Shown here piece after piece: positions 5,997 through 33,529 of a stretch of 34,579 bases of DNA (positions are counted from its first letter, which is position 1; the number at the start of each line of letters is the position of its first letter). The notes below the pieces were generated by a model. That model was given only the letters and a program-made list of their open reading frames with translations. It ran no database searches and was not told the DNA's origin. The DNA is taken from positions 1 to 34,579 of the IMG/VR virus record IMGVR_UViG_3300032294_003198; one strand, 5' to 3'. This DNA comes from a virus. The translations under genes were made by a program, and so were the position numbers.

Positions 5997-7604
5997 ATGA
6001 GCGAACCCACATTATTCGATTTGCCGAGTGAGCCGGAACAGTTTGGGATCATACTGGCTCCTGCCAGATTGAGGCGGATAGACTTCAGCGGATTAGACTT
6101 TTCTACGGCTAGACGAGCTATAATCGAATATATTAAGACATATTATCCAGATCAATTTAATGATTATGTCGCTAGTAATGGCATAATCATGATGACAGAG
6201 ATCATAGCATCAGTAGTATCCAAGTTATCTCTTAGAGCTGATATTTTAGCCAATGAGGCTACATTGCCCACAGCAAAGACGGAACGGGCAGTCATCAACC
6301 ATCTTGCGTTGATCAATCAACGGATTAAAAGACAGACACCGGCCATCATAGATATCGAAATGTCAGTCGATGTACCGTTAACAACGGACGTGGAGATAAC
6401 CCCTGGCATAGTATTCACAGCCAATGGCCCAGACAATCTGCCTATATATTATGAGGCGTATAAGGCTCCAGGTGATTTTAATAGCAACATAATTATCCCA
6501 GCCGGCAAGAGGGGTGTGATTGCTTGGGGTATACAAGGCAGGTTCGCCGGACCAGTTAAAGCAATAAGCTCAGGGGGTGCTAACCAAGTCTTCGAAATAA
6601 CCGATAAATCGATATTAGAGGATCCAATTAGTGTGATGGTTTCCTTCGGTTTAGAGAAGGTAGAATGGACTGTGGTTAAAGATCCTATAGAGAGATATGG
6701 ACCCAATGATAAGGTGGTAGAAGTAAATTTTTTCGATGATAATGCTATATTTAGATTCGGCGATGATGTGACCGGATCTGCACCTAAGTCTGGGTCTGAG
6801 ATAGAATTTAGATATAGGACTGGTGGTGGTATAAGGGGCAGGATAGGTGTTGGTACAATCGATACACAACGACAGATCACTCCTAATCCGCCAGCTAACG
6901 CAGCTGTCTCCGTGCGTTTCCGTAACGTCTCAGCCTCAAGTGGTGGTACGGATAAGGAGACTATCGAACAGGCCAAGAAGAGGGCACCGAGAGACTTTTC
7001 CGTTCAGGGAAGCATAGTCACAGCTGGCGATTATGCCATAGCAGCTACCAACTTTTCTCATCCAGTGTTTGGCTCGGTATCTAAGGCTGTTGCCACTCTA
7101 AGGTCAAGCAAGAACGCCAATTTAGTAGAATTATACGTTTTGGCTGAGGGCCCAGACGGCATTCCGACTGCACCGAATGCCGGATTAAAGGTCGGTCTCG
7201 AAACTTATATTAGTGATCTAAACGTCTTCACTGATCATGTAAAGGTCGTGGACGCCAAGATCTTGCCAATAGATGTAGAATTCAATGTGGTAATTGATCG
7301 AAACGCTGATGCATCTGTGATCAAGCAGAAAGTAGAGGCCGCAACAACCAAATTTTTCGATTCTAGTAATTGGGAGTTAGGCCAAGGGTTGTACACATCT
7401 AATCTAATAGAGGCGTTAGAATCGATAGACGGTGTGTCTTATATTGATCTTTTCAAGCCTGCTGACAATATCTTACCGGCTAATATAGCATTCAATAATA
7501 ATGGCCTCACTGTTATAGAGTATAATCAGATGATAGTTGAGGGTAAGAGAACTACCAATTATTATTATTCAAAAAGTACGGCACCGGTCAATACTAATCG
7601 CTAA
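5997..7604 (+). CDS. 6: Baseplate wedge protein gp6-like (baseplate J)
   Basis: 535 residues; ATG with TGAGGA upstream, overlapping the end of gp25. The N-terminus (LRRIDFSGLDFSTARRAIIE, then YYPDQFNDYVASNGIIMM) is the signature of gp6/J-type wedge proteins, followed by a helical DILANEATLPTAKTERAVI segment, a beta-sandwich, and the conserved KRAPRDFSVQGSIVTAGDY motif that marks baseplate J-like proteins. gp6 dimers clamp neighbouring wedges into a ring in T4. It is somewhat shorter than T4 gp6 (660 residues), as in other distant T4 relatives. It ends the plus-strand tail operon; its last 11 nt overlap the tail end of the convergent cupin gene. Confidence 0.88.
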   Translation: MSEPTLFDLPSEPEQFGIILAPARLRRIDFSGLDFSTARRAIIEYIKTYYPDQFNDYVASNGIIMMTEIIASVVSKLSLRADILANEATLPTAKTERAVINHLALINQRIKRQTPAIIDIEMSVDVPLTTDVEITPGIVFTANGPDNLPIYYEAYKAPGDFNSNIIIPAGKRGVIAWGIQGRFAGPVKAISSGGANQVFEITDKSILEDPISVMVSFGLEKVEWTVVKDPIERYGPNDKVVEVNFFDDNAIFRFGDDVTGSAPKSGSEIEFRYRTGGGIRGRIGVGTIDTQRQITPNPPANAAVSVRFRNVSASSGGTDKETIEQAKKRAPRDFSVQGSIVTAGDYAIAATNFSHPVFGSVSKAVATLRSSKNANLVELYVLAEGPDGIPTAPNAGLKVGLETYISDLNVFTDHVKVVDAKILPIDVEFNVVIDRNADASVIKQKVEAATTKFFDSSNWELGQGLYTSNLIEALESIDGVSYIDLFKPADNILPANIAFNNNGLTVIEYNQMIVEGKRTTNYYYSKSTAPVNTNR

Positions 7605-8049
7605 TTCTAATAGCTGGTTGGTGGAGCAGTGGGCCGCCTTCAGTCAGGCGATATATGTCATCTATAGAGCAGGTTTGGTTGCTCGCGGTCCAATAGATCT
7701 CCAATACTTCTCCGGCCGATAATACGAAGAACCTGTGGTATGTCTGCGGTGCCACAACATAGTGTTGCCCAGGAGATAAGTAATGAGTGACCATGGGCAT
7801 ACTGCTGGGTATGATAGCAGGATTAGTGTTTTTACTCCAAACCTCTATGGCGATCAAAGCAGTGGTTGAAATAAAGGCATTATACCTATGTTCATGCTTA
7901 TGTATTGAGCATTGCCATCCTTTATTGACCTGAAGGATGCTTGCGTTGATATTTTGGTCTTGAAATTTATGAAGTATTTTACCCCAACATTTATCTTGCC
8001 AGATCTGATATCCGAACCAATTAGCTATTTTTTGCTTTAGTGAAGCCAT
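7594..8049 (-). CDS. Small cupin-fold protein, function unknown
   Basis: 151 residues if started at the ATG ending at 8049 (MASLKQK...). The frame also extends to an ATG at 8133, but that start would overlap the ribosome site and start of the divergent gene at 8126, so I prefer the internal one. After a Trp-rich helical N-terminus come strands with cupin character: HKHEHRYNAFISTTALIAIE (a His-x-His-x3 cluster like cupin motif 1), then TPxxx-like L-S-P-G-Q-H-Y-V-V-A-P-Q-T-Y-H-R and EVLEIYW (motif 2). The His cluster could bind a metal. Cupins of this size include sugar-phosphate isomerases, epimerases and dioxygenases; the substrate cannot be told. It is the first gene of an alternating-strand accessory patch and overlaps the gp6 stop by 11 nt. 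Confidence 0.6.
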   Translation of the reverse strand: MASLKQKIANWFGYQIWQDKCWGKILHKFQDQNINASILQVNKGWQCSIHKHEHRYNAFISTTALIAIEVWSKNTNPAIIPSSMPMVTHYLSPGQHYVVAPQTYHRFFVLSAGEVLEIYWTASNQTCSIDDIYRLTEGGPLLHQPAIRISD

Positions 8050-8834: not shown

Positions 8835-9482
8835 ATGAATACGCTAGTGAGTGATGAAGATAAAGTGATGATTGTGTGGAATTGGTGCTCAGATGCATAT
8901 TTACAGCACGGTATTAGGCTCAAATTGCCTGCCAATACAGATCCGGCTACCACCTATCAATGGCGATATGCTAAAGCTATAGCTAATAAGTTCGAAGAAT
9001 GGGGGTTTGATGACGCTACATCTCAGAAATTTATTCAAGTCGCAGTCAACCATTGTAAACGTGCGGGAGTTATCCATAAGGGTTTAGCATCTCTTCATCA
9101 AGCAAATATGTTGAGTGTATGCCTGGCTCAGATGAAGAAAAGGTCTGATTCAAATACCCAATCTATCGATTCAATCAAAGGCATACACCAATGGTTATCC
9201 AGACGAATAGGTGTAGATGCTCTAAAAGGGTTGTTACATAGAAGCGATACACATGAACTATGCAATATCGTTAAATGGTATAAAGCTAATCGGATCTCTA
9301 GGCTGTATTTAGCTTTATCTAGGCCATGTCTCAAATCTTTGGATATTCTTAAGCACACCAATCAGGAAGAACGCGACTTATTACCATCTAAGCCTTCCCT
9401 ATTTCTGTTAAGGTCGGAATTTCTCGAAGAAGCCAACAACGTTCAAAGTGTCAAGCAGATCCTTGGAGAAGAATGGAGATGA
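8835..9482 (+). CDS. Hypothetical protein upstream of RNR, 215 residues
   Basis: The frame is open from a TTG at 8796, but that would lie inside the minus-strand gene start; the ATG at 8835 (MNTLVSDEDK) is the likelier start. The product is helical, with Trp- and Lys-rich segments (VWNWCSDAYL, QWRYAKAIANKFEEWGFDD) and a central region of conserved look (FIQVAVNHCKRAGVIHKGLA). There is no membrane segment or catalytic signature. It overlaps the RNR gene by 10 nt and carries the RNR ribosome site (GGAG near 9464), so the two are co-transcribed. It could be a replication or host-takeover accessory protein; no function can be assigned. Confidence 0.65.
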   Translation: MNTLVSDEDKVMIVWNWCSDAYLQHGIRLKLPANTDPATTYQWRYAKAIANKFEEWGFDDATSQKFIQVAVNHCKRAGVIHKGLASLHQANMLSVCLAQMKKRSDSNTQSIDSIKGIHQWLSRRIGVDALKGLLHRSDTHELCNIVKWYKANRISRLYLALSRPCLKSLDILKHTNQEERDLLPSKPSLFLLRSEFLEEANNVQSVKQILGEEWR

Positions 9483-12400
9483 CAGTGCCATCAGCTAAAG
9501 TCAACGATAATATCAATGTCACCGAAGAATATTTCGGAAATATCTATAACACTAATGAAGAACCTTTTAAGTTAGATGAGCAGTTTTTGCTCAAGTACCA
9601 AGGGCGTAAACCCAAGTTCGGGTTCAATGGCTTAGGTGAGTTCGTATATTATAGGACGTACTCACGGCTTAAGGATGATGATAACAAGGAGAAATTTATA
9701 AATACACTGATTAGAGTCGTTGAAGGCTGCTACGAGATACAAAGACAGCACTGCAAGAAGATGCATATCCCTTGGGACTATCAAAAGGCACAGGCATCAG
9801 CACAGGAAATGTTCGTCAGAATGTGGGACTTTAAATTTCTCCCACCGGGTCGAGGATTGTGGATGATGGGTACTGACTTCATGTGGAAACGAGGCAGTGC
9901 GGCATTAAATAATTGTTTTGATGGCAGTACCGAATACATTACTAGAGACGGTATAAAGTCACTTAAGGATACAGTAGGCACGACGCAGAAAGTCTTGTCG
10001 ACTGGTGGCAAATGGGTGGATGCTAAGATTAAGTCCTTTGGCGAACAAGAACTACTCAAGATTACAATGCATCGTGGTAGGTACACCAAGATCATATATG
10101 CCACTGCTGACCACAGGTGGCTGGTTAAGTCTAAATCAAGGTTATTGAGCGTCGTGCATGGAGTTGAAGACACAGATAAGAAACCCATATATAAAGTAAG
10201 AGAGACGAATACTCTCGGGCTAAAACGAGGTATGCGACTTGTGGTTAATTTTGGTTCTGGTATTGCCAATAACTTGAGACCCAGTGTCGTAGGAATAATG
10301 CATGGGATATGTCTAGGTGATGGTACCACAGGGTCTGATACTAATAGTCATGGAACTTATTTATATTTATGTGGCGACAAAGATAAACAATTGTTGAAGT
10401 ACTTCCGGGAATTCCACGTAACAGACGCCCCGGAACGTGGAAGTTTAGGAGCTAAAAGAGTAGCCGATCTGCCAAGATTCTTTCGGCAGGTTCCTAACCT
10501 ATCAGAAGCTAGCACATATCTTTATGGTTGGTTGGCGGGGTATTTTGCCGCTGACGGCAGGGTATCTAAGTGTGGCTCGATACAGATATCGTCCAAAGAC
10601 AGATCTAATCTAGAAACTGTCAAGTCGGTTTGTGCCATATTGGGAATAGGCACACATGATATAATTAGTGGCCTACAGACAGTGGTCTACAAAGGTGTGA
10701 CTAAAAAATTCCTGCAATATAGGATAACACTATTTGCCGATCACTTGCGTGATGATTTCTTTTTGATCGAAGATCACTTAAAGAGGTACCAGCAGATAAG
10801 AAAACCTAACCGGCAGAAGATCCCCCAATATTGTTATTGGGTAGTGGATAGCGTAGAGTCTACTGGTAGAAGAGAAGAAGTGTATTGTGCGCAAGTACCT
10901 GATTATCACACATTTACACTAGAAGGGAACATACTTACTGGTAACTGTGGGTTCGTCTCTACAGACGATTCTATCGAGTCAGATCCAGCCGAACCTTTTT
11001 GCTTTTTGATGGATATGTCGATGTTGGGAGTCGGAGTGGGTTTTGATACTAAAGGCGCGGGCAAAATAGCTATAAATCAACCCAATGAAGAAAGTACTTG
11101 GCGGTACCAAATCCCAGATTCACGCGAGGGGTGGGTTGATTCAGTCCGGTTCCTTATTTGGTCATATACTAAATATTCGGATCGAGGAATAGTTGATTTT
11201 GATTACAGCCTCATCCGCGCGACCGGTAGCATCATCAAGGGATTTGGCGGGAAGGCTAGTGGGTCAGGCATACTGGAAGAACTTCATGACTTAATAAGAG
11301 GCCATCTAGACCGTAGGGTCGGAGGTACGCTTTCCAGCGTTGACATTACTGACTTAATGAACTATATTGGCAGATGCGTGGTAGCAGGCAACGTTCGCCG
11401 CACAGCCGAAATAGCATTCGGAGAGCCAGACGATAAGCAGTACTGTTCGATGAAAAACCCGATGGCTACTTTAGTAGAGTCTGATTATGCGGATTTCTAT
11501 AAGGCAACCGGTCAATTATATTCTCAAAATCGAAGCCAAGCCGAGCTTAACGATTTTGCTGACGGTAATGGAGGTTATATTATACCAAAGGAGAGGCTCG
11601 CACCTGCTATTGAGACTTGGAACGCACTCAACCATCATAGATGGTCGTCTAATAATTCGATCTTTGCTTATATCGGAATGAATTATGACTTTATAGGTCG
11701 TCAAATAGCCGCAAATGGTGAGCCTGGGTTGATGTGGCTTGACAATATGCGTGATTACGGTCGAATGATTGATGGTAGGCAGCCAGGCATAGACGGCAGG
11801 GTTAAGGGAGGGAATCCTTGTTTTGCTGGCAATATGCGTTTATTTACAGAACAGGGATATGTTAGCCTATATGACCTCTGGTTGACAGGTGGCAGCCAAG
11901 AATATAAAGGAACAGATAACTCGATAGCAAAGTACGGTGTTCAAAATATCGTCAACAAACATGGCGTGGTGCAAGCATCTAAAGTCTATAGAACAGGCAC
12001 AGATGTGGACGTATATCGCGTGAATTTGAGCGATAATTCACATATCGAAGCTACTGAGAACCATACTATGATTAAGATCAATAAATCTCCTAGCAAAAAA
12101 GCAGGCAAGACCAAGTATCAGGAAGTGAGAATCCCGTTAAGAGACTTAGTGGTTGGTGACTTAATACCAGTCAATAATACAGTTCATTTTGGATCTATCC
12201 ATAACCCAACATATGCAGAATTAGCTGGATGGTGTATAGGTGATGGTTCTCTCTCCAAGAAGGCCGATGGTCAGATTAAAGCAGAATGCACTTGTTATCA
12301 ACAAGACATTATAGAGGCGAGACCCAAAATATCGTGTCTTCTGACCGAATTATATTACGTTCACACCCTATCGACTAATCAGAAACCAGTATATGCCGGT

Positions 12401-13912
12401 TGGGATAGAAAACAAGCACATTTCAAGCATACAGAGTGCCGTCAGGGCTCAAATGTATTGGGCAGGATGCTCAATCAAGATAATATTAAGCCTGGTGACA
12501 AGCACAAGGTGCCAATGTCCATATGGAGTGGTACCAAGGCAACTGTGGCAGCATTTATCAGAGGCTTGGCTTCTGCTGATGGATGGGTGCAAGCCAGCGA
12601 TGAAAAAGCAACGATATCAGTAAGAATCAAACAGTCCAATCAGAAGCTACTAGAAGACTGCAAGTTGTTATTAAACCAGTTTGGCATACATTCGAAAGTC
12701 CATTACCGACATGGAGGTGGTCATCAATTGATGAATAATGGTAAGGGTGGTAAGAGCAATTATCGTCGTCGACCTGGATATGAATTGATAATATCTGGTA
12801 TAAAGCAAGTCGGCCGGTACATGGACGACATTGGATTCATCCAACCTTCAAAGGCCAAAAAGGCTGTTGAATGGCTACATGCCCATCATGGCTCAAATAA
12901 CTCGGACACTGGGAAGTATGTCAAGGTCATGTCCGTTGAATATATTGGTCGGCAAGATACATTCTGTTTGACTGAGCCGCAAGATAATCGAGTGGTAATA
13001 GAAGGCTTACAGGTTGGTCAATGCTTGGAACAATCGTTGGAATCATACGAACTGTGCAATTTGGTGGAAACCTTCCCGGCGAATCATGACGATGCAGAAG
13101 ATTACATGCGTACACTCAAGTTCGCTTATCTTTATGCTAAAACTGTGACTTTGCTCCCAACGCACAATCCACGGACTAACCAGGTAACACTACGAAACCG
13201 GAGAATCGGGCTATCACAAAGCGGGATCGTGCAGGCATTTGCTAAATTTGGAAGGCGTAAGATGCTACATGATTTCTGCGATGCGGGATATAATGAAATC
13301 CGCAGATGGGACCAGGTATATTCTGAATGGCTATGCATCCAACGCTCTATCAAAGTCACATCGGTTAAGCCTAGTGGTACTGTGTCTTTAGTAGCTGGGG
13401 CTACTCCTGGTATTCATTATCCCGAAGCGAGCACATATTGGCGACGGGCTAGATTGGCTAAAGACAGTCCTTTGGTCAAAATCTTGGAGGATGCGGGATT
13501 TCATATAGAGCCTGATGTCAAGGATCAAGATAGGACCGTAGTAGTCAAGTTTGGGATCAGCGATGAAAGAGTTAAACCTGTCGACCAAATTAACATATGG
13601 GAACAAATGGCTAACGTCTGTGATTATCAAAGGTATTGGGCAGATAACCAAGTATCTTGTACTATTAAGTTTAAGGCGGAAGAAGCTGATCAGATATCTC
13701 GTGTGCTTGAGGCATACGAAGATCAACTTAAAGGTATTAGCTTTCTACCGTTATCCAACCATGGCTATACACAGGCCCCATACGAGCCGTGCTCCCCTAC
13801 TGAGGTGGCTGAATATAATGCCAAAATAACTGACACTGACTATTCGTCTTTTATTGGTCAGGAGGCTGAAGGTGCCAAGTTCTGTGACTCAGACAAGTGT
13901 ATTATTACTTAA
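9473..13912 (+). CDS. nrdJ: Class II (B12-dependent) ribonucleoside-triphosphate reductase with two inteins
   Basis: A 1479-residue precursor. Removing two inteins (344 and 401 residues) leaves 734 residues, close to the 739 of Lactobacillus leichmannii RTPR, the type monomeric class II enzyme, which reduces NTPs to dNTPs using adenosylcobalamin. Visible extein landmarks: FLPPGRGLWMMGT; NN-CGFVST, whose Cys corresponds to C119; NP-CLEQSLESYELC, where the first Cys (thiyl radical, C408), the Glu two residues later (E410) and the Cys 11 residues later (C419) have exactly the RTPR spacing; the SVKPSGTVSLVAGATPGIHYP phosphate/nucleotide segment; and the C-terminal C-x4-C pair (FCDSDKC) that relays electrons from thioredoxin. 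The start is either ATG at 9473 or ATG at 9479. It overlaps the upstream gene by 10 nt. It supplies dNTPs for phage replication. Confidence 0.93.
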   Translation: MEMTVPSAKVNDNINVTEEYFGNIYNTNEEPFKLDEQFLLKYQGRKPKFGFNGLGEFVYYRTYSRLKDDDNKEKFINTLIRVVEGCYEIQRQHCKKMHIPWDYQKAQASAQEMFVRMWDFKFLPPGRGLWMMGTDFMWKRGSAALNNCFDGSTEYITRDGIKSLKDTVGTTQKVLSTGGKWVDAKIKSFGEQELLKITMHRGRYTKIIYATADHRWLVKSKSRLLSVVHGVEDTDKKPIYKVRETNTLGLKRGMRLVVNFGSGIANNLRPSVVGIMHGICLGDGTTGSDTNSHGTYLYLCGDKDKQLLKYFREFHVTDAPERGSLGAKRVADLPRFFRQVPNLSEASTYLYGWLAGYFAADGRVSKCGSIQISSKDRSNLETVKSVCAILGIGTHDIISGLQTVVYKGVTKKFLQYRITLFADHLRDDFFLIEDHLKRYQQIRKPNRQKIPQYCYWVVDSVESTGRREEVYCAQVPDYHTFTLEGNILTGNCGFVSTDDSIESDPAEPFCFLMDMSMLGVGVGFDTKGAGKIAINQPNEESTWRYQIPDSREGWVDSVRFLIWSYTKYSDRGIVDFDYSLIRATGSIIKGFGGKASGSGILEELHDLIRGHLDRRVGGTLSSVDITDLMNYIGRCVVAGNVRRTAEIAFGEPDDKQYCSMKNPMATLVESDYADFYKATGQLYSQNRSQAELNDFADGNGGYIIPKERLAPAIETWNALNHHRWSSNNSIFAYIGMNYDFIGRQIAANGEPGLMWLDNMRDYGRMIDGRQPGIDGRVKGGNPCFAGNMRLFTEQGYVSLYDLWLTGGSQEYKGTDNSIAKYGVQNIVNKHGVVQASKVYRTGTDVDVYRVNLSDNSHIEATENHTMIKINKSPSKKAGKTKYQEVRIPLRDLVVGDLIPVNNTVHFGSIHNPTYAELAGWCIGDGSLSKKADGQIKAECTCYQQDIIEARPKISCLLTELYYVHTLSTNQKPVYAGWDRKQAHFKHTECRQGSNVLGRMLNQDNIKPGDKHKVPMSIWSGTKATVAAFIRGLASADGWVQASDEKATISVRIKQSNQKLLEDCKLLLNQFGIHSKVHYRHGGGHQLMNNGKGGKSNYRRRPGYELIISGIKQVGRYMDDIGFIQPSKAKKAVEWLHAHHGSNNSDTGKYVKVMSVEYIGRQDTFCLTEPQDNRVVIEGLQVGQCLEQSLESYELCNLVETFPANHDDAEDYMRTLKFAYLYAKTVTLLPTHNPRTNQVTLRNRRIGLSQSGIVQAFAKFGRRKMLHDFCDAGYNEIRRWDQVYSEWLCIQRSIKVTSVKPSGTVSLVAGATPGIHYPEASTYWRRARLAKDSPLVKILEDAGFHIEPDVKDQDRTVVVKFGISDERVKPVDQINIWEQMANVCDYQRYWADNQVSCTIKFKAEEADQISRVLEAYEDQLKGISFLPLSNHGYTQAPYEPCSPTEVAEYNAKITDTDYSSFIGQEAEGAKFCDSDKCIIT
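9914..10945 (+). mobile_element. Intein 1 in RNR (LAGLIDADG, 344 residues)
   Basis: An in-frame intein inserted between extein residues Asn-Asn and the C119-equivalent Cys. Block A begins C-F-D-G-S-T-E-Y (Cys1 at 9914). Block B has the T-x-x-H set in YATADHRWLV. Two dodecapeptide motifs of a LAGLIDADG homing endonuclease are present: VVGIMHGICLGDGT (about nt 10280-10322) and YGWLAGYFAADGRV (about 10522-10563), each with its acidic residue. Block F/G reads VYCAQVPDYHTFTLEGN and ends Gly-Asn before Cys+1 (10946). The penultimate residue is Gly instead of the usual His. Confidence 0.93.
11819..13021 (+). mobile_element. Intein 2 in RNR (LAGLIDADG, 401 residues, ends in Gln)
   Basis: An in-frame intein inserted between Asn-Pro and the C408-equivalent radical Cys. 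Cys1 (11819) opens block A (C-F-A-G-N-M-R). Block B has T-x-x-H in EATENHTMI. The endonuclease motifs are YAELAGWCIGDGSL (about nt 12208-12249) and VAAFIRGLASADGW (about 12547-12588). Block F/G reads DTFCLTEPQDNRVV and ends in Gly-Gln before Cys+1 (13022). A terminal Gln replaces the usual Asn, so cleavage would need glutamine cyclisation. Confidence 0.93.
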
Positions 13913-26473: not shown

Positions 26474-26485
26474 TAGGAGATGGGC

Positions 26486-27229
26486 ATGCTACCTACCAGA
26501 AGAAAAGTGTCTAGCGTTGTATCTGAGTCCAGAACACTGTTGGACCGCAGGCTCATAGCTGAAACCGGCGTTGTGCCAGATGGGTTCAAGTTGATCAGAG
26601 ACACATTTTCATTCGACATCATCGATAAGAAAAATGTAGTAGTCGAAGGCAAGAATGGGTCAGAGGTCCACGTAATGAGGGTCTCTGGCCTGATTCAAAT
26701 GGGCGATCGCGAGAACGCCAATGGCAGGCTTTACTCAACAGCTGATGTGTTGAGACCAGCCGTTCAAAATATACAGGAAGACGTGCAGTCGAGAGCGGTT
26801 ATGGGAGAGTACGATCACCCCGCAGACGCTAAGATACACCTTGATAGGGTCAGTCACCTGATGACAAAGGTCTGGATGGATGGCCGCAAGGTGTATGGTG
26901 AGGCAGAGATTCTTCACAATTTGCCATGTGGTGCCTGCTTACGTGGCTTGTTTGAGCACAAGGTTCGTGTAGGCATATCCTCTAGGGGTGTTGGCGACAT
27001 GGAGGTCGTTGAGAGTTCCGGTAAAGAACTGTATCGGGTCATGCCAGGATATACGTTCGTGACATGGGATGCAGTCGCAGAGCCATCAGTCAATGGGGCC
27101 ATCCTTAACATTCAAGAGGGATTATCTCGTAGAATCAAGCCTCTAAACCAGATCAAGCATAAGTTTAAACCTGAGGTATATCAGAGTATGCTAGTTAAAG
27201 AGATAAATAAATATTTCGGGTTAAAATAA
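26486..27229 (+). CDS. 21: Prohead core protease gp21-like
   Basis: 247 residues from ATG 26486; an ATG at 26480 abuts AGGAG (26475-26479) with no spacer, so the second ATG, 6 nt away, is preferred. Landmarks of the T4 gp21 serine protease family: NANGRLYSTADVL, then GEYDHPADAKIHL with the catalytic His, the strand RKVYGEAEIL, GVGISSRG-type VRVGISSRGVGDM containing the catalytic Ser, and VTWDAVAEPSVNGAIL. The enzyme sits in the prohead core, matures itself and cleaves capsid, core and scaffold proteins before DNA packaging. The last ~150 nt are repeated in degenerate form at 28939-29072. A hairpin and the nuclease-fusion gene follow directly. Confidence 0.92.
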   Translation: MLPTRRKVSSVVSESRTLLDRRLIAETGVVPDGFKLIRDTFSFDIIDKKNVVVEGKNGSEVHVMRVSGLIQMGDRENANGRLYSTADVLRPAVQNIQEDVQSRAVMGEYDHPADAKIHLDRVSHLMTKVWMDGRKVYGEAEILHNLPCGACLRGLFEHKVRVGISSRGVGDMEVVESSGKELYRVMPGYTFVTWDAVAEPSVNGAILNIQEGLSRRIKPLNQIKHKFKPEVYQSMLVKEINKYFGLK

Positions 27230-27275: not shown

Positions 27276-28814
27276 ATGATAGATTGGGATTCTTCAGAGC
27301 ATAACATAAATGATATTAAGAATAAATGTATAGTTATTGTGGTTTGTGAATCTTGTAATAACAAACGAGAGCAGTTGTATCAGGTGGCCAAGAGGAAGTC
27401 AACACACATATGTATGTCATGCGTAAAATCTTCTAACAAGCATGGAAGCATGAGAACAGGCCAATTGGTCACCTATAGGTGTTCCTGTGGGGCAGAAAAG
27501 GAGATGAAGTATAGACCTAGCCGATATGAAAAATGGCAATGCCATCATTGTGCTATGGTTGGTGCCCATAAAGAAGGCAAGATAAGATCAGTACACAATA
27601 CTCCATCAATAGAGGGTAGGGAGAGACTGTCTGAATTGGCTCGACAAAGATGGGCTGATCCTGAATATCGTCTTAGCATGGCGACCAAGAAAGCTCTTTC
27701 CAAAGCTAGAAGATCGGATATATCTAAACAATTGTGGAAGGATGAGGATAGATTACGAGCGTTGTCGGAATCCATTAAACGTGTGTGGTTGCAGGATGAG
27801 TATAGAAATACTAGAAGTAGACAAAGCAGGGAATGTTGGAAATCTGAAGGATACCGAATCCGGCATGCTAATGGCATGCTTAGGGACGACGCCAGACAGA
27901 GAATGCTTGCTGCGAGGGGTGCACAAAAAGGAGCAGTGAGCAATATTCAAAGGATGCTGTATTCTTTTTTGCATGATCTGAACGTCGATTTTTACGAAGA
28001 GGGAGACAAAACCAGGTTAGGATATTATTCGTTCGATTGTTTGATTCCCGCCAAATCGGGTGGTAAAGGCGGATTACTAGAATGTCAAGGAGATTACTGG
28101 CACACTCTATCCAAGACACAAGTTAAAGACCGTTCTAAATTCTCGTATATTAGCAGATACTTTCCAGAATATGAGATAATGTATATTTGGGAACACGAAT
28201 TCTATGCCAAAGACAAAGTGATAGGGCGGCTTAAGTCGAAGTTAGGGATTGAAGTAAAAGTAGAAGATTTCGACTTAAAAGATTTGGTGATAGTAGAGGA
28301 CATTAAAGTTGCAGATATAAACAGTTTTTTGGATGCTTATCATTATATAGGTAAGGGTCGATCGGGTAAAACATTTGGGGCGTATATAAATGATAAATTA
28401 ATAGCATGTGCTGTATATTCTAATTTAATAAGACAAAATATAGCACATCAATTTGATGGTGACAGTCTTGAATTGGCCCGATTGTGTATACATCCTAATT
28501 ATCAAAAACGTAATCTAGCCAGTTATTTCTTGTCTAGGACCTTCAAGAATTTGAATGTAACCAATGTGATAAGTTATTGTGATACTACTGTGGGTCATAC
28601 TGGTGCTGTTTATAAATCTTTAGGATTCATGCTGCACCATGAGGTGGATCCAGATTATTGGTATATTGACACTAATGGATGGGTAATGCACAAAAAGACA
28701 TTATATGAACGTGCCAGGAAGATGGGCACGACGGAGGCAGACTATGCCAGCCAGTTTGGATATATAAGAAAATATGGCGGTAGGAAATATTGCTTTTTAA
28801 AGAAGCTGAACTAG
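27276..28814 (+). CDS. Zinc ribbon / NUMOD-like / VSR-like nuclease fused to Mom-like acetyltransferase
   Basis: 512 residues in four visible parts. (1) Two zinc-ribbon-like sites: C24-x2-C27 with C46-x2-C49, and C69-x-C71 with C89-x2-C92. (2) About residues 108-225: repeated short basic segments with W-x-D/S-x-(E/D)-Y-R (RWADPEYRLSMATKKALSKA, LWKDEDRLRALSESIKRVW, LQDEYRNTRSRQSRECWKSE), like the NUMOD-type DNA-reading repeats of homing endonucleases. (3) About 245-330: YYSFDCLIPAK then GLLECQGDYWH, the F-D-x-x-(I/L)-P ... (L/I)-E-x-x-G-x-Y-W-H signature of VSR-like/PD-(D/E)xK nucleases. (4) About 345-455: a GNAT-like domain with ELARLCIHPNYQKRNLASYF, VISYCDTTVGHTGAVYKSLG, resembling phage Mu Mom-type DNA-modification acetyltransferases. 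Its position in a capsid operon next to duplicated protease sequence fits a homing element. Codon usage is more AT-rich than that of its neighbours. Confidence 0.78.
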   Translation: MIDWDSSEHNINDIKNKCIVIVVCESCNNKREQLYQVAKRKSTHICMSCVKSSNKHGSMRTGQLVTYRCSCGAEKEMKYRPSRYEKWQCHHCAMVGAHKEGKIRSVHNTPSIEGRERLSELARQRWADPEYRLSMATKKALSKARRSDISKQLWKDEDRLRALSESIKRVWLQDEYRNTRSRQSRECWKSEGYRIRHANGMLRDDARQRMLAARGAQKGAVSNIQRMLYSFLHDLNVDFYEEGDKTRLGYYSFDCLIPAKSGGKGGLLECQGDYWHTLSKTQVKDRSKFSYISRYFPEYEIMYIWEHEFYAKDKVIGRLKSKLGIEVKVEDFDLKDLVIVEDIKVADINSFLDAYHYIGKGRSGKTFGAYINDKLIACAVYSNLIRQNIAHQFDGDSLELARLCIHPNYQKRNLASYFLSRTFKNLNVTNVISYCDTTVGHTGAVYKSLGFMLHHEVDPDYWYIDTNGWVMHKKTLYERARKMGTTEADYASQFGYIRKYGGRKYCFLKKLN

Positions 28815-28904: not shown

Positions 28905-28938
28905 AATAAAATACCTGGATCTGATCAAAAAATAAATA
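28905..28938 (+). repeat. Degenerate copy of the late-promoter block found before the scaffold gene
   Basis: About 34 bp (AATAAAATACCTGGAT, then CTGATCAAAAAATAAATA) match 32717-32751 with one substitution and one missing base. The missing base falls in the late box, turning TATAAATA into AATAAATA, so this copy is probably weakened or dead. The gp21 remnant starts immediately after it. Confidence 0.85.
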
Positions 28939-29072
28939 CAGAGCCATCAGTCAATGGGGCCATCCTGAACATACAAGAGGGATTATCTCGTAGAATCAAG
29001 CCTCTCAACCAGATCAAGCATAAGTTTAATCCTGAGGTATATCAGGGTATGAATATTTCGGCTTAAAAATAA
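28939..29072 (+). pseudogene. Duplicated 3' end of prohead protease gene
   Basis: This stretch copies the protease 3' end (27078-27229) with few substitutions and one deletion of about 19 nt near the end that shifts the frame. Of six codon differences before and around the deletion, four are synonymous third-position changes. There is no start or ribosome site, so it is a non-coding remnant. It ends beside the convergent stop of the 1000-codon gene. Confidence 0.88.
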
Positions 29073-29086
29073 TTCCTGAATATTAG

Positions 29087-32000
29087 TCAACTGCCGCCAT
29101 ATCTACCCCATATATCATCAAGCTCTTCTGGCGAAAAACCAAAGAGATCGGCATCAGTCACTTGGTCGTCGAGTGGCTGCTCATCATGTGGAGCTGGGTC
29201 GTTCATCAAGCTTAACCCGCCAAAACCCAAACCAGCATTGAATTGGTGCACGTATGTCTCCATATCAGGATCTTGTATACTATAGATAGATATACCACAA
29301 GGGATACCTTCTATCATCTTGTAGGCGGTAATAAGCAAGGCAGCATCACGTTTCAATTCTTGCAGTTCGTATTCGTTATCTTCTACAGGTGTGGCTGATG
29401 CATCATACTGAACAAAGCTAAGTGCTCGATGCAACTGCTCGGGGTTGATGTCCAAATACTCTTGAGTGGTTATCGGACGGCCATCTACTATTTTAGTGAC
29501 TATCAGGTTTAGATTATTGAAATCAGCTTCCTGATGCTTACCGTGTATCTCGTCAACGGTGAAGCCGGAGTGCTCTAGCCAATGTAGTATTCTACGGAGA
29601 TCTACCCCCTCAGATTCATATAATACATGTTCAGTCAGCAGCGAGGATAAAACATTGACATCCATCCACTCACGTTGAGGTATTTGGTCCAACCGGATAT
29701 GCCACCAGTCTTCATCCACCCGCTTAGCACCCAAGTTTTGGGCCACCTTGTCATAAGCCCGATAATATACGCTACCCTCCTCATCTTCCTTGCCACTGGC
29801 CTTGCCCCATAGTTTACCGATCTTGGTGCTGGATATAATATAGACATCCTTGATCTGTTGCATGCGGGCGGCATTAAAGCAAGCATGATAGAAGGCTTCA
29901 ATCCAATCCTTATAAAAGTTTTCTACCTTGGATTTAAATTGCGAGAAATTAGTGAGCTTGAACCTACGTTGAGCGTTGGTAACGGCTGTCGCCAAATCTT
30001 TAGTGGCCTGATTAATCTCTTGAGCCAGGCGTAAACGGATACTTGCTGGTGCGTGCGTGTACTCCCTTTTGGTCATTGCCAATTCTCGCCGCTTGTGGGC
30101 GATCAAGGACTTAGTATCTTGGATGGTCTTGGCATTCTTGGCATTAAACTGTTCTTGATTGGTCAATTCGATAGTTCGTTGTAGCAAATCTGATTGCACC
30201 TCGTTGATGTACATGCTAGTGCCATCCACGCTGCCGCCTATCCAACCCAAGTGCTTGTAAGAAGGTTTCAGAACGGAACCAGAACCTATCCTGTGCAGAT
30301 CCATAGAACTAAAGATCTCATCGGGGATATCAATATCACGGGCACCAATAGCCAGAGTAAAAGACTTACCACTCGATACTTGCCTGCCGGGTATCTTGCG
30401 GTCCAGATGATGCACGTCGTGTGGGAAAAAAGAGGAATTAGGAACCTCCTTGGTACTAATTGTCATAGGTTTAACAGGAGCCGCTCGTGCGGGTCTACGC
30501 TCACGCTGAGCATTAGCATCACGGGGAGCGCGGACCACTTTGGGTTTTTTACCCGCTATCCAATTGCTAATACTAGACTCAAGTTGAGCATCATCCATAA
30601 CTTGTATCTTGGTGCCGCCATACGAACCCACCAACAACACATCATCACCTGACAGCAAGATATCCAGAGGCTTCTTGGCCAGAGGATGGGACAATGTGAA
30701 AAGGCCATGCATCTTACCCTTTTGAACATAATTGCTGTGCTTCACATGTAACTCAGGATGCAGCCGTAACACATCCTTGAGCACTTCTCTAACCTGTGCT
30801 GCAAGGTCTTGTTCAATATCATCATTATCGTTGCCCGACGCGACATCATCTTCCCGTAAGATCCTATCCAGCTTGCGTTGGTAATTCTCACCTACTATGC
30901 TCTTCTCGAGTATGGTATGCACAGTGTTAAAAATATCTAAAGCCTGCTCATGGGTGATACGAGCAGTCAGGTGCTGGTCATTGGCGATGCCGTCTGCCTG
31001 CTTGGGGATTATTTGGATTGTATACATACCATATAAATCAGGTTCATGGATCAGTACCTGCACGTGACCGTAATCCGTATTCATCTCGATGGTCAACTTA
31101 TCATACGTTGCATGCGCTGAATTAACATTGGGAAGGTAGTCCTTAATCGTGGCCAAGATGGGTTTGGCCCAATTATTATCTCTAGCATATCTAACATTAG
31201 TAATAGAATCTGGAATAGAGATTACAGGTACATCCCGACCAGTAGCTACCATATGTAATACCCGCCATAAATTTTTACCAGCGTAATCCCTCAACTCGTC
31301 TTCGGGTACAAGCAAAGCAGATGAATAAGATGAATAATCAAAATTACCATAGATAGCTAATTTATTAACCAATTTGGCCAACCCAGCAGAAACTCGTTCA
31401 TAAGATACCGCGTCTCGGAATAATTTCTCAAGTGAGGCAGGTTTTACTATATTGTTGCCCTGGAGCGTAATCGAACTATTTGCAGATCCAGGCCATACTA
31501 CTATTTGCACATATATCTTTGTAGAAGTAGCACGGACAGACTGTAAGGGAAGATGAATTTCAACAGAAACGGATACCCTACTGATGTCGAGATCCTTATT
31601 AGCATGGGCATCCATTGGAAGCTTAAACTGATAGGACCTAATACTACGATTATCGTAATGATGGTCATTAACACTAGTAGATACACCACTATCTGCAGCC
31701 CGAGACCAATAGCCATTAAGCAGCTCATCCAAGCCCTTAGCATTATCCACACGAGCTGCAGCCTTACTAGCCAACCGCAATTCCTTAGCTATACGCTGTT
31801 GGATGAGCTGCTGTACTTGTGACCATGAATCAGCATGACCAGTTTGTTGCACCCGTAGACCAGGCTTACCATTAACCACACCAATATCTAGATCAGCCCC
31901 CGCCCACTTAATAGGATTACCACCCTTTGGCACCACCCTGGCAAACCAAGCCACAGCATTATACGTACTATGGTGGTTCATAGGAATAAATTTAAATCCT

Positions 32001-32089
32001 GCAGGTAACTGCACCCGCTGCACCAACCTATCATATAACAGAGACTGGATATCATCTCGAGGACCCTCAACAATAGTATCTAATCTCAT
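29087..32089 (-). CDS. 1000-residue minus-strand protein with EvQSD-type region, probable virion or injected protein
   Basis: 1000 residues; the reverse-strand ATG ends at 32089, with TTGAGGAAG upstream. The N-terminal ~430 residues appear to hold repeated mixed alpha/beta domains (KLDRILREDD closes this part); a second part (about 430-540) ends in an Arg/Pro-rich basic linker (RAPRDANAQRERRPARAAPV). From about 590 there is a distinct domain with GWIGGSVDGTSMYINEVQSD (near 615-635), a long helical hairpin (about 640-715), and FYKDWIEAFYHACFNAARMQ followed by VYIISSTKIGKLWG. The E-(V/I)-Q-S-D box followed by a W...A...A helix and a short strand is a recurring arrangement in large polyvalent proteins of phages and plasmids, some of which enter the host with the DNA. 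The tail is acidic. No catalytic residues are assigned. It interrupts the capsid operon in opposite orientation. Confidence 0.7.
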   Translation of the reverse strand: MRLDTIVEGPRDDIQSLLYDRLVQRVQLPAGFKFIPMNHHSTYNAVAWFARVVPKGGNPIKWAGADLDIGVVNGKPGLRVQQTGHADSWSQVQQLIQQRIAKELRLASKAAARVDNAKGLDELLNGYWSRAADSGVSTSVNDHHYDNRSIRSYQFKLPMDAHANKDLDISRVSVSVEIHLPLQSVRATSTKIYVQIVVWPGSANSSITLQGNNIVKPASLEKLFRDAVSYERVSAGLAKLVNKLAIYGNFDYSSYSSALLVPEDELRDYAGKNLWRVLHMVATGRDVPVISIPDSITNVRYARDNNWAKPILATIKDYLPNVNSAHATYDKLTIEMNTDYGHVQVLIHEPDLYGMYTIQIIPKQADGIANDQHLTARITHEQALDIFNTVHTILEKSIVGENYQRKLDRILREDDVASGNDNDDIEQDLAAQVREVLKDVLRLHPELHVKHSNYVQKGKMHGLFTLSHPLAKKPLDILLSGDDVLLVGSYGGTKIQVMDDAQLESSISNWIAGKKPKVVRAPRDANAQRERRPARAAPVKPMTISTKEVPNSSFFPHDVHHLDRKIPGRQVSSGKSFTLAIGARDIDIPDEIFSSMDLHRIGSGSVLKPSYKHLGWIGGSVDGTSMYINEVQSDLLQRTIELTNQEQFNAKNAKTIQDTKSLIAHKRRELAMTKREYTHAPASIRLRLAQEINQATKDLATAVTNAQRRFKLTNFSQFKSKVENFYKDWIEAFYHACFNAARMQQIKDVYIISSTKIGKLWGKASGKEDEEGSVYYRAYDKVAQNLGAKRVDEDWWHIRLDQIPQREWMDVNVLSSLLTEHVLYESEGVDLRRILHWLEHSGFTVDEIHGKHQEADFNNLNLIVTKIVDGRPITTQEYLDINPEQLHRALSFVQYDASATPVEDNEYELQELKRDAALLITAYKMIEGIPCGISIYSIQDPDMETYVHQFNAGLGFGGLSLMNDPAPHDEQPLDDQVTDADLFGFSPEELDDIWGRYGGS

Positions 32090-32188: not shown

Positions 32189-32330
32189 CTAATGGATGGG
32201 TTATGTATAAAAGACATTATAGGAGCGTGCTAAGAAAATGAGTATCAAAGAGAATGATTACGCTCATCGATTTGGATATATAAGGATATATGGCGGCAAG
32301 AAATATTGCTTTGTCAAGCAATTATATTAA
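32189..32330 (+). pseudogene. Decayed 3' end of a second nuclease/acetyltransferase fusion gene
   Basis: Nucleotides 32189-32330 resemble the end of the fusion gene (about 28671-28814): NGWVM-K-R is readable first, then after a one-base frameshift DYAHRFGYIRIYGGKKYCFV, against DYASQFGYIRKYGGRKYCFL in the intact gene. The copy is more diverged than the protease remnant and has no upstream coding part; the 1000-codon gene lies where that would be. Confidence 0.82.
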
Positions 32331-32363: not shown

Positions 32364-32390
32364 GAATTATATGAATTATATGAATTATAT
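32364..32390 (+). repeat. 9-bp tandem repeat spanning the start codon
   Basis: GAATTATAT occurs three times in a row, from the end of the Shine-Dalgarno through the first codons, giving three in-frame ATGs (32371, 32380, 32389) and an M-N-Y-M-N-Y-M-N N-terminus. Confidence 0.9.
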
Positions 32391-32718
32391 GAACGGACCT
32401 TTACATATGAATATGTTGGCTTCTGGCATTAATAAGACGATTAAAGCAGCATATTTTTGGATAATGAATACTTTAAATCCCAATGATTTTATCACATTTG
32501 GGTTTGAGCATGATTCGGTTTATGTGGGAGCTAGGGCTGACGTCGTCGATGGGTCATCTGGGGTGTATGGTTGGGCATTGATAGCCCACCGAGATGGAAC
32601 TGCGACACTTCAAGTTAGAGATGAAAAAGGTGGTGCAGTAACAGTAGACTTACTTAAGGCTACCAGAGTCTTAAAAAATCTTATTGATGCAGTGGATGTT
32701 AATAAAGGCGTCGAATAA
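32371..32718 (+). CDS. Hypothetical protein, 115 residues, own late promoter
   Basis: ATG 32371 has an ideal ribosome site (AAAGGAG, 6 nt away) and a perfect late box. The N-terminus repeats Met-Asn-Tyr because of a DNA slippage repeat, so the mature start may vary among the three ATGs. The rest has a helix (LASGINKTIKAAYFWIMNTL) and a beta-rich core with a GWALIAHRDGTATLQVRDEK sheet and a final helix TRVLKNLIDAVDV. No family is recognised. It lies between the fusion-gene remnant and the scaffold promoter, with no counterpart in the T4 capsid operon. Strong expression signals suggest a late product, perhaps a virion or prohead component. Confidence 0.72.
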   Translation: MNYMNYMNGPLHMNMLASGINKTIKAAYFWIMNTLNPNDFITFGFEHDSVYVGARADVVDGSSGVYGWALIAHRDGTATLQVRDEKGGAVTVDLLKATRVLKNLIDAVDVNKGVE

Positions 32719-32751
32719 TAAAATACCTGGATCTGGTCAAAAATATAAATA
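32717..32751 (+). promoter_or_regulatory. Late promoter block of the scaffold gene (intact copy)
   Basis: A perfect TATAAATA at 32744-32751 ends a 35-bp block that is repeated, in damaged form, at 28905-28938. It would start a leader of about 56 nt ahead of the scaffold ATG (32813) and drive scaffold and capsid expression. Confidence 0.72.
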
Positions 32752-32812
32752 ACGAATAGGGAATGCATTGCTCGGCAAAAATAACATTAAACGCGATTAG
32801 GAGATGAAAGCA

Positions 32813-33529
32813 ATGGATAAGATTAAGGCTCTTCTTGAGAAGGCGGGCGTCAAGCCAGAGCTGGCTACGCAGATATGCGAGTCATTGGTTCAGTATAAGT
32901 CATCTCTACGTGAACAATTCAACAAGGAGTATGCTGCCAAGGTTAAGCAGGCCAAGAAGGTCTGCCTTGAAGAGACCGAGGCGCATAAGAGAGAACTTGC
33001 ACGTCGGGTGCAGATTTTTTGTGAGACGAAGAGCGCAGCGATCGAGGCACAAATTGCTAGGCAGTCGGCCCTTAACGAAACCGAAGCCATGTCCAAGCTT
33101 ACCCGCATAGTAGGATTACTAGAGGGTGTTGAGCCAAATGGCGGGCAAAGCGGTGACGTTACAGCCACAATTGATAAGCTCAAGCAACAGGTCAAAGTCG
33201 CGACTGAGGGTAAGAAGCAGGCTGTTGAACTTGCTAACCGCAAGACTGCAATAGCTGAGAAGGCTCTAAAGCGTAACAGAGAGTTGGCTACGGCTCTGAA
33301 GACCATCGAAGAGCGTAAGCAGTCGACTCGTGCTGGTGCTGTGACTGAAAGCAGACAAGCGCCAGCATCTCGAAGAATCGATATGTCACGCGTTTCTGGT
33401 CGGGCCAGATCCACTAGGGCTACCCTTACGGAGAATCAGGATCGTCGTCCAGTTCAGCAGCGAAGACCGTCGAGCGGTGGTTTTAGCATCGACAACATAG
33501 CTGCTGGGATGGATAGCGACCTATCGTAA
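32813..33529 (+). CDS. 22: Prohead scaffold/core protein gp22-like
   Basis: 238 residues from ATG 32813; an ATG at 32804 abuts the AGGAG (32799-32803), whereas 32813 is 9 nt away. The product is almost all helix: ALLEKAGVKPELATQICESL, then a long coiled coil rich in K, E, A and Q (EQFNKEYAAKVKQAKKVCLE ... VKVATEGKKQAVELANRKTA), then a basic, disordered Arg/Ser-rich stretch and a short C-terminal GFSIDNIAAGMDS. This architecture and the position between protease and capsid genes match gp22, the main scaffold of T4-type proheads, which is degraded by gp21 during maturation. It is followed after 50 nt by the capsid gene, probably on the same transcript. Confidence 0.8.
   Translation: MDKIKALLEKAGVKPELATQICESLVQYKSSLREQFNKEYAAKVKQAKKVCLEETEAHKRELARRVQIFCETKSAAIEAQIARQSALNETEAMSKLTRIVGLLEGVEPNGGQSGDVTATIDKLKQQVKVATEGKKQAVELANRKTAIAEKALKRNRELATALKTIEERKQSTRAGAVTESRQAPASRRIDMSRVSGRARSTRATLTENQDRRPVQQRRPSSGGFSIDNIAAGMDSDLS

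What the first reader, a model, noticed from the sequence alone, without database searches (positions are those of the whole stretch)
27276..28814. Fusion of homing-type nuclease with a Mom-like GNAT domain
A single 512-codon gene joins two zinc ribbons, NUMOD-like repeats, a VSR-like catalytic core and a GNAT domain whose E-L-A-R-L ... H-x-G-A-V-Y-K-S-L-G-F pattern recalls the Mom adenine-modification enzymes. A nuclease that carries its own DNA-modifying domain could mark or protect the resident copy while cutting competitors, a compact restriction-modification-like homing system. That reading is inference; the domains themselves are visible.
Basis: partly seen in the sequence, partly recalled or inferred. 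Interest (0 to 1): 0.8.

Follow-up and report, generated by a model that had tools for sequence, protein, structure and literature searches.

The report
Homing endonuclease carrying a Mom-type domain
This phage gene makes a DNA-cutting enzyme that copies itself into related phages and also carries a domain closely resembling Mu's DNA-marking enzyme Mom; the combination is real and widespread in large phages, but what the marking domain does there has not been tested.

Summary
Confirmed. Window 27276-28814 encodes an intact 512-aa protein. A family profile matches only two sequences in the whole PDB at E<=0.1: the homing endonuclease structure 3r3p (nuclease part) and phage Mu Mom 8bv8 (C-terminal part). 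Mu Mom is also the best fold match. The serine mutated in the inactive Mom structure (S124A) aligns with S416 here, which is S or T in 63/63 family members. The gene is a free-standing homing gene: it sits just after gp21 in this phage and five relatives, while 14 of 15 loci found by a gp21 search run straight into gp22. Here it lies between two copies of the gp21 tail, upstream of the remains of an older, L006-type allele. It belongs with the 'Hef-like' phage endonucleases, where I find the same nuclease-plus-GNAT layout. Nuclease-Mom fusions were already reported in jumbo phages and read as restriction-modification (PMC7824862). So the protein is a new member of a known kind. New here: the link between Hef homing genes and Mom fusions, the active-site test, and the allele-replacement footprint. 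Whether the Mom domain modifies DNA, and whether that protects the resident phage, stays open and is testable in E. coli K-12 phages.

The parts
27276..28814 (+). Hef-like homing endonuclease gene with C-terminal Mom-type GNAT domain (512 aa)
27327..27431 (+). zinc ribbon 1 (residues 18-52; C24, C27, C46, C49)
   Evidence: sequence; strands in the model
27462..27560 (+). zinc ribbon 2 (residues 63-95; C69, C71, C89, C92)
   Evidence: sequence; strands in the model
27603..27932 (+). helical W-x(2-4)-YR repeat region (residues 110-219), probably DNA-binding; among the most variable parts
27933..28280 (+). Vsr-like / EDxHD nuclease core (residues 220-335; D254, E269, Q271, H276, D285)
28281..28811 (+). 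Mom-type GNAT domain (residues 336-512; H356, Y357, R402, S416, D436, Y446)
26480..27229 (+). gp21 prohead protease (Peptidase_S77), upstream neighbour and probable target gene
27078..27190 (+). gp21 tail, first copy (part of the working gene)
   Evidence: 113 nt, 96% identical to 28939-29051
28905..28938 (+). copy of the spacer that precedes gp22 (matches 32717-32751, 94%)
28939..29073 (+). gp21 tail, second copy, a decaying fragment (internal deletion after 29051)
29087..32089 (-). 1000-aa gene of unknown family lying between the gp21 tail fragment and the old endonuclease relic
32189..32324 (+). relic of the 3' end of an older, L006-type copy of the same endonuclease
   Evidence: 187-nt match from 32190 on, 95.2% to the L006 gene end and following spacer; 77% to the intact window gene
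32371..32718 (+). 115-aa ORF found only beside this endonuclease (here and in L006)
32717..32751 (+). native pre-gp22 spacer, second copy
32804..33529 (+). gp22-like scaffold gene, which directly follows gp21 in empty-site relatives

Best explanation
This is a free-standing homing endonuclease of the Hef-like, EDxHD/Vsr-like kind. Its zinc ribbons and W-x-x-YR repeats (inferred to bind DNA) direct the nuclease to the gp21-gp22 region of a co-infecting phage that lacks the gene; the cut is repaired from the donor copy, so the gene and the adjoining gp21 tail spread. The occupied and empty sites, allele replacement and footprint are shown by comparison; cleavage itself is inferred. The C-terminal Mom-type GNAT domain is very likely a working enzyme domain and most likely modifies adenine in DNA as Mom does (inferred, about 0.6). 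That this shields the resident phage's uncut gp21 target from its own nuclease is a further, weaker inference (about 0.35).
For: Family profile against all PDB sequences hits only 3r3p, 'Mobile intron protein' (E 3e-11), and 8bv8, Mom (E 4e-10) at E<=0.1. Whole-protein fold search ranks Mu Mom first, E 8e-8, above all ordinary GNATs. Mom active-site positions align and are kept: H356, D436, Y446 in 63/63, R402 in 62/63, S416 (= Mu S124, mutated in the inactive 8bv8) S/T in 63/63. Nuclease D254 and H276 63/63, E269 62/63. Mobility: same site occupied in L003-L007 and the window, empty in L020-L033; old L006-type relic and tandem two-allele structure. Variable N-terminus against conserved nuclease and GNAT (mean pairwise identity 0.12-0.15 / 0.41 / 0.45). 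Low dN/dS (0.065-0.10) in every part in L003/L007.
Against: No activity data. The GNAT could be kept for substrate binding or another acyl transfer. T4-type Hef relatives match Mom only weakly (Pfam E 0.0015, 0.085 or none; hhalign E 0.0075 with probability 5%) and carry N where this protein has D436. The tandem footprint rests on one contig (one search found no second assembly).
Confidence: 0.78

Rival explanations
1. A phage restriction-modification enzyme: the Mom domain modifies the phage genome and the nuclease attacks unmodified host or rival DNA; its position is not due to homing.
For: Published prediction for jumbo-phage Mom-REase fusions (PMC7824862); both active sites kept.
Against: Patchy occupancy at one exact site, a displaced older allele, several copies per genome with different N-termini and a PDB best match to a homing enzyme fit a homing gene better. 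No PADLOC match.
Confidence: 0.15
2. The GNAT domain is catalytically silent here and serves as an extra DNA-binding or structural domain of a plain homing endonuclease.
For: Large phage homing enzymes often use added DNA-binding modules (PMC3943268); no activity known; T4-type Hefs have drifted from Mom.
Against: The GNAT is the most conserved part while target-reading parts should vary between sites, and its invariant residues fall on Mom active-site columns including the S124 that inactivates Mom.
Confidence: 0.2
3. The two-copy arrangement (gp21 tail, endonuclease, pre-gp22 spacer, twice) is an assembly artefact joining two strains rather than a recombination footprint.
For: Seen in one metagenomic contig only; no second assembly with the junction.
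Against: The copies differ (96%, 77%, 94%) and the join at 28938/28939 has about one base of shared sequence, so no shared k-mer is visible that could have misled the assembler. Tail copies also flank relatives in L016, L017, L058, L060.
Confidence: 0.12

Closest known systems
Hef-like free-standing homing endonucleases of T4-type and Campylobacter phages (Hef of phage U5; NCTC12673 gp167 'Hef168'; Acinetobacter phage 133)
   Same: Same nuclease + GNAT order and key residues; free-standing between phage genes; FL18 copy lies between nrdA and nrdB where U5 hef is reported; phage 133 and RPN226 copies lie between gp23 and gp24.
   Different: About 27% identity over the shared part; different N-terminus; D436 is N in the T4-type copies; different target gene.
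EDxHD homing endonuclease I-Bth0305I (PDB 3r3p; that the entry is I-Bth0305I is my own knowledge)
   Same: Only significant PDB sequence relative of the nuclease domain.
   Different: Intron-encoded by my knowledge; the solved 105-residue fragment has no GNAT domain.
Phage Mu Mom (PDB 8bv8, Pfam PF25680)
   Same: GNAT domain above the Pfam cutoff, best fold match, active-site positions aligned.
   Different: Mom is a separate single-domain protein with no nuclease; about 21% identity.
Mom-REase fusions of jumbo phages (Iyer et al. 2021, PMC7824862)
   Same: Same domain combination, described in one paragraph.
   Different: There read as restriction-modification; the passages I read do not link them to homing or to Hef.
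Fungal mitochondrial mobile ORFs with duplicated C-termini (PMC3630166)
   Same: Mobile endonuclease gene inserted at a gene's 3' end with a second copy of that gene's tail.
   Different: Different nucleases, organelle hosts; here the tails are 96% alike and the rear copy is decaying.

Membership tests
Mom protein family (PF25680) | Pfam Mom model above its curated cutoff | tested here: met
   57.2 bits vs 27.1, E 2.4e-15; 56 of 57 relatives match at E<=0.01
Mom protein family (PF25680) | Closest fold is Mom rather than another GNAT | tested here: met
   8bv8 ranks 1 and 2 among 350,542 PDB chains
Mom protein family (PF25680) | Active-site serine S124 and neighbouring H, R, D, Y positions kept | tested here: met
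   the functional roles of the H, R, D and Y positions are from memory
Mom protein family (PF25680) | Adenine methylcarbamoylation of DNA | not testable with these tools
   needs purified protein and mass spectrometry
EDxHD homing endonucleases | Vsr-like core homologous to the solved EDxHD enzyme | tested here: met
   3r3p, E 2.7e-11
EDxHD homing endonucleases | The letter-by-letter E-D-x-H-D active-site motif | tested here: inconclusive
   D254, H276, D285 invariant or nearly so, E242 90% or more in A1; the published motif positions could not be read, and the crystallised chain has A opposite D254 and H276
Hef-like free-standing homing endonucleases | Homology over nuclease and C-terminal domain to annotated Hef | tested here: met
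Hef-like free-standing homing endonucleases | Gene between host genes with occupied and empty sites among relatives | tested here: met
Hef-like free-standing homing endonucleases | Site-specific cleavage and preferential inheritance | not testable with these tools
   needs cleavage assay and phage cross
Vsr mismatch endonuclease | Pfam Vsr match and Vsr residues D51, T63, H64, H69 | tested here: not met
   no Pfam Vsr match; hhalign E 6.9e-5 with D51 and H69 equivalents but E269/Q271 where Vsr has F62/H64
NUMOD repeat proteins | Match to a NUMOD model | tested here: not met
   none for this protein at E<=10; none among the 25 most frequent families of 57 relatives
Restriction-modification system | Modification and cleavage activities sharing one recognition site | not testable with these tools
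   needs biochemistry; no PADLOC match

The most novel reading that the evidence does not exclude
A whole family of phage homing endonucleases carries its own active Mom-type DNA-marking enzyme, so that each mobile gene can modify the target it leaves intact in its own phage while cutting unmodified rivals: self-protecting homing in a single polypeptide.
Probability: 0.3. Interest if true: 0.8.

Novelty: new member of a known kind. Interest (0 to 1): 0.52.

Why it matters
Two lines of work that I did not find joined in the papers searched meet here: Hef-like homing genes, described as unlike other homing enzymes, and Mom-nuclease fusions, predicted to be restriction-modification enzymes. If they are one family, an open question (why would a homing enzyme carry a base-modifying domain, and how do free-standing homing genes spare their own phage when the insertion does not split the target?) becomes directly testable in T4-type phages of E. 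coli K-12.

Tried and rejected
NUMOD label: no model match. Vsr proper: two of the Vsr active-site residues are replaced. PADLOC and single-sequence phmmer against PDB: nothing. Deciding which gp21 tail copy is native: informative differences split 2:2 against L006 at DNA level, so not claimed. Gene-tail duplication as a general rule: found in 5 of 66 loci tested, plus one weak case (L088), so it is a recurring footprint, not a defining feature. L016/L017 empty-site test: the search returned only the same two contigs and one remote hit. Second assembly of the junction: none. Sandegren 2005 (Hef) and the Mu Mom mutagenesis paper are not held. First structure model (pLDDT 72) replaced by a deeper one (86.5); pTM stayed 0.48, so domain placement is not trusted.

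Full report
OBSERVATION. The ORF at 27276-28814 is open for 512 codons. Pfam places residues 340-500 in the Mom family well above the curated cutoff. PHROGs matches the protein almost end to end to HNH/homing endonuclease families and its C-terminal part to 'Mom-like DNA modification protein'. No single-sequence match to PDB exists, but a profile of 57 family members finds exactly two PDB sequences at E<=0.1: 3r3p 'Mobile intron protein' over the nuclease part (E 3.3e-11) and 8bv8 'Methylcarbamoylase mom' over the C-terminal part (E 4.3e-10). The nuclease part alone gives 3r3p at 2.7e-11. The predicted structure (mean pLDDT 86.5) has Mu Mom as best PDB fold match, ahead of all ordinary acetyltransferases.

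ACTIVE SITES. In 63 full-length proteins (62 relatives plus this one) D254 and H276 of the nuclease and H356, D436, Y446, Y461, Y463 of the GNAT are invariant; E269, R402 and H472 fail in one sequence each; S416 is S (57) or T (6). The patterns used to collect relatives contain nuclease or GNAT motifs, so conservation inside those motifs is partly selected for; S416, R402, D436 and Y446 lie outside them. Profile alignment to Mu Mom (E 2.3e-11) pairs H356-Y357 with H58-Y59, R402 with R111, S416 with S124, D436 with D149 and Y446 with Y159. The PDB entry 8bv8 is named 'inactive mutant S124A', and comparison of its sequence with Mu Mom shows that the changed residue is this S124. Against E. coli Vsr D254 and H276 match Vsr D51 and H69, while E269 and Q271 stand at F62 and H64; the core is Vsr-like, not Vsr.

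DOMAIN HISTORY. The N-terminal part varies strongly (zinc ribbons, helix-turn-helix, 0-12 repeats) with mean pairwise identity 0.12-0.15, against 0.41 for the nuclease and 0.45 for the GNAT. Nuclease and GNAT distances correlate at r=0.78, N-terminal distances with either at only 0.40-0.46. Nuclease and GNAT therefore travel as one unit behind exchangeable DNA-reading parts (inference from these numbers). In the close pair L003/L007 dN/dS is 0.065-0.10 in every part, the GNAT included.

MOBILITY. Five relatives carry the gene directly after gp21. Searching with gp21 instead gave 15 loci; one (L019, the same contig as L006) is occupied and 14 run from gp21 into the gp22-like gene with 49-100 bases between. 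Two of the empty ones carry a relative elsewhere downstream (L020, L022), and L006 has a second copy after the gene that follows gp22. The Campylobacter phages listed hold 5-11 matching places per genome.

FOOTPRINT AT THIS LOCUS. Three repeat pairs lie in the same order: gp21 tail 27078-27190 / 28939-29051 (96%), endonuclease 3' end 28672-28802 / 32189-32318 (77%), pre-gp22 spacer 28905-28938 / 32717-32751 (94%). The window thus holds two alleles of one locus head to tail: an intact new one, then an older one whose endonuclease is reduced to a 3' stump. The stump matches the L006 gene end and following spacer at 95.2% over 187 bases and the intact gene at only 77%. A 1000-aa gene on the other strand fills the place of the lost body. 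A simple account (inference): a break in gp21 near 27077 was repaired on one side from a donor carrying the new allele, and the far end was joined directly, leaving the recipient's gp21 tail behind. That would put the cut inside gp21, in sequence that the resident phage still has whole, which is why a protecting modification would be useful. Tail copies of the upstream gene also flank relatives in L016, L017, L058 and L060; the same kind of footprint is known from fungal mitochondrial mobile ORFs (PMC3630166).

WHAT IS KNOWN. Hef of phage U5 is reported to cut nrdB and to lie between nrdA and nrdB (PMC2988022, PMC3322345), and Hef-like genes form a recognised group (PMC3296691). The gene at that position in E. 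coli phage FL18, and Hef-like genes between gp23 and gp24 in phages 133, RPN226 and Apostate, show the same nuclease-GNAT layout with the nuclease D, E, H and the GNAT H, R, S, Y kept. One record already names the product 'putative nuclease/acetyltransferase'. I could not read the original Hef paper and do not have the U5 sequence, so the identity of U5 Hef itself with this layout rests on position and annotation. Iyer et al. (PMC7824862) reported Mom-REase fusions in jumbo phages and proposed restriction-modification. Literature searches in the open library found no paper linking Mom or GNAT domains to homing endonucleases; subscription journals are not covered.

VERDICT. Shown: the fusion, its relation to Mom and to a homing enzyme of known structure, preserved active-site residues in both, mobility by comparison, allele replacement in one contig. 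Inferred: target in gp21, cleavage, DNA modification by the GNAT, self-protection. The protein is a new member of a known kind; the link between two separately described families and the active-site test are the gain.

Noticed in passing
window 29087-32089 (-): A 1000-aa gene with no match in PHROGs, PADLOC or the phage collection and no significant Pfam family; a 39%-identical relative lies beside the second endonuclease copy in L006.
   Followed up: partly
window 32371-32718 (+): A 115-aa ORF occurs only next to this endonuclease (here and in L006) and is missing from the empty-site relatives.
   Followed up: partly
L016 5976-6044 / 7568-7636; L017, L058, L060: Relatives of the endonuclease sit between two diverged copies of the upstream gene's tail; in L058 the 13 residues are identical despite several base changes.
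   Followed up: partly
L120-L123 (Lokiarchaeota MAG contigs): Close relatives of the nuclease-Mom fusion, some in several copies, lie on contigs binned as Lokiarchaeota; archaeal virus or mis-binning was not resolved.
   Followed up: no
window 9473-13912 (+): Ribonucleotide reductase gene interrupted by an intein with a LAGLIDADG endonuclease domain.
   Followed up: no
L052 3512-5797: A 762-aa member with 12 W-x-x-YR repeats, useful for working out what the repeat reads.
   Followed up: no
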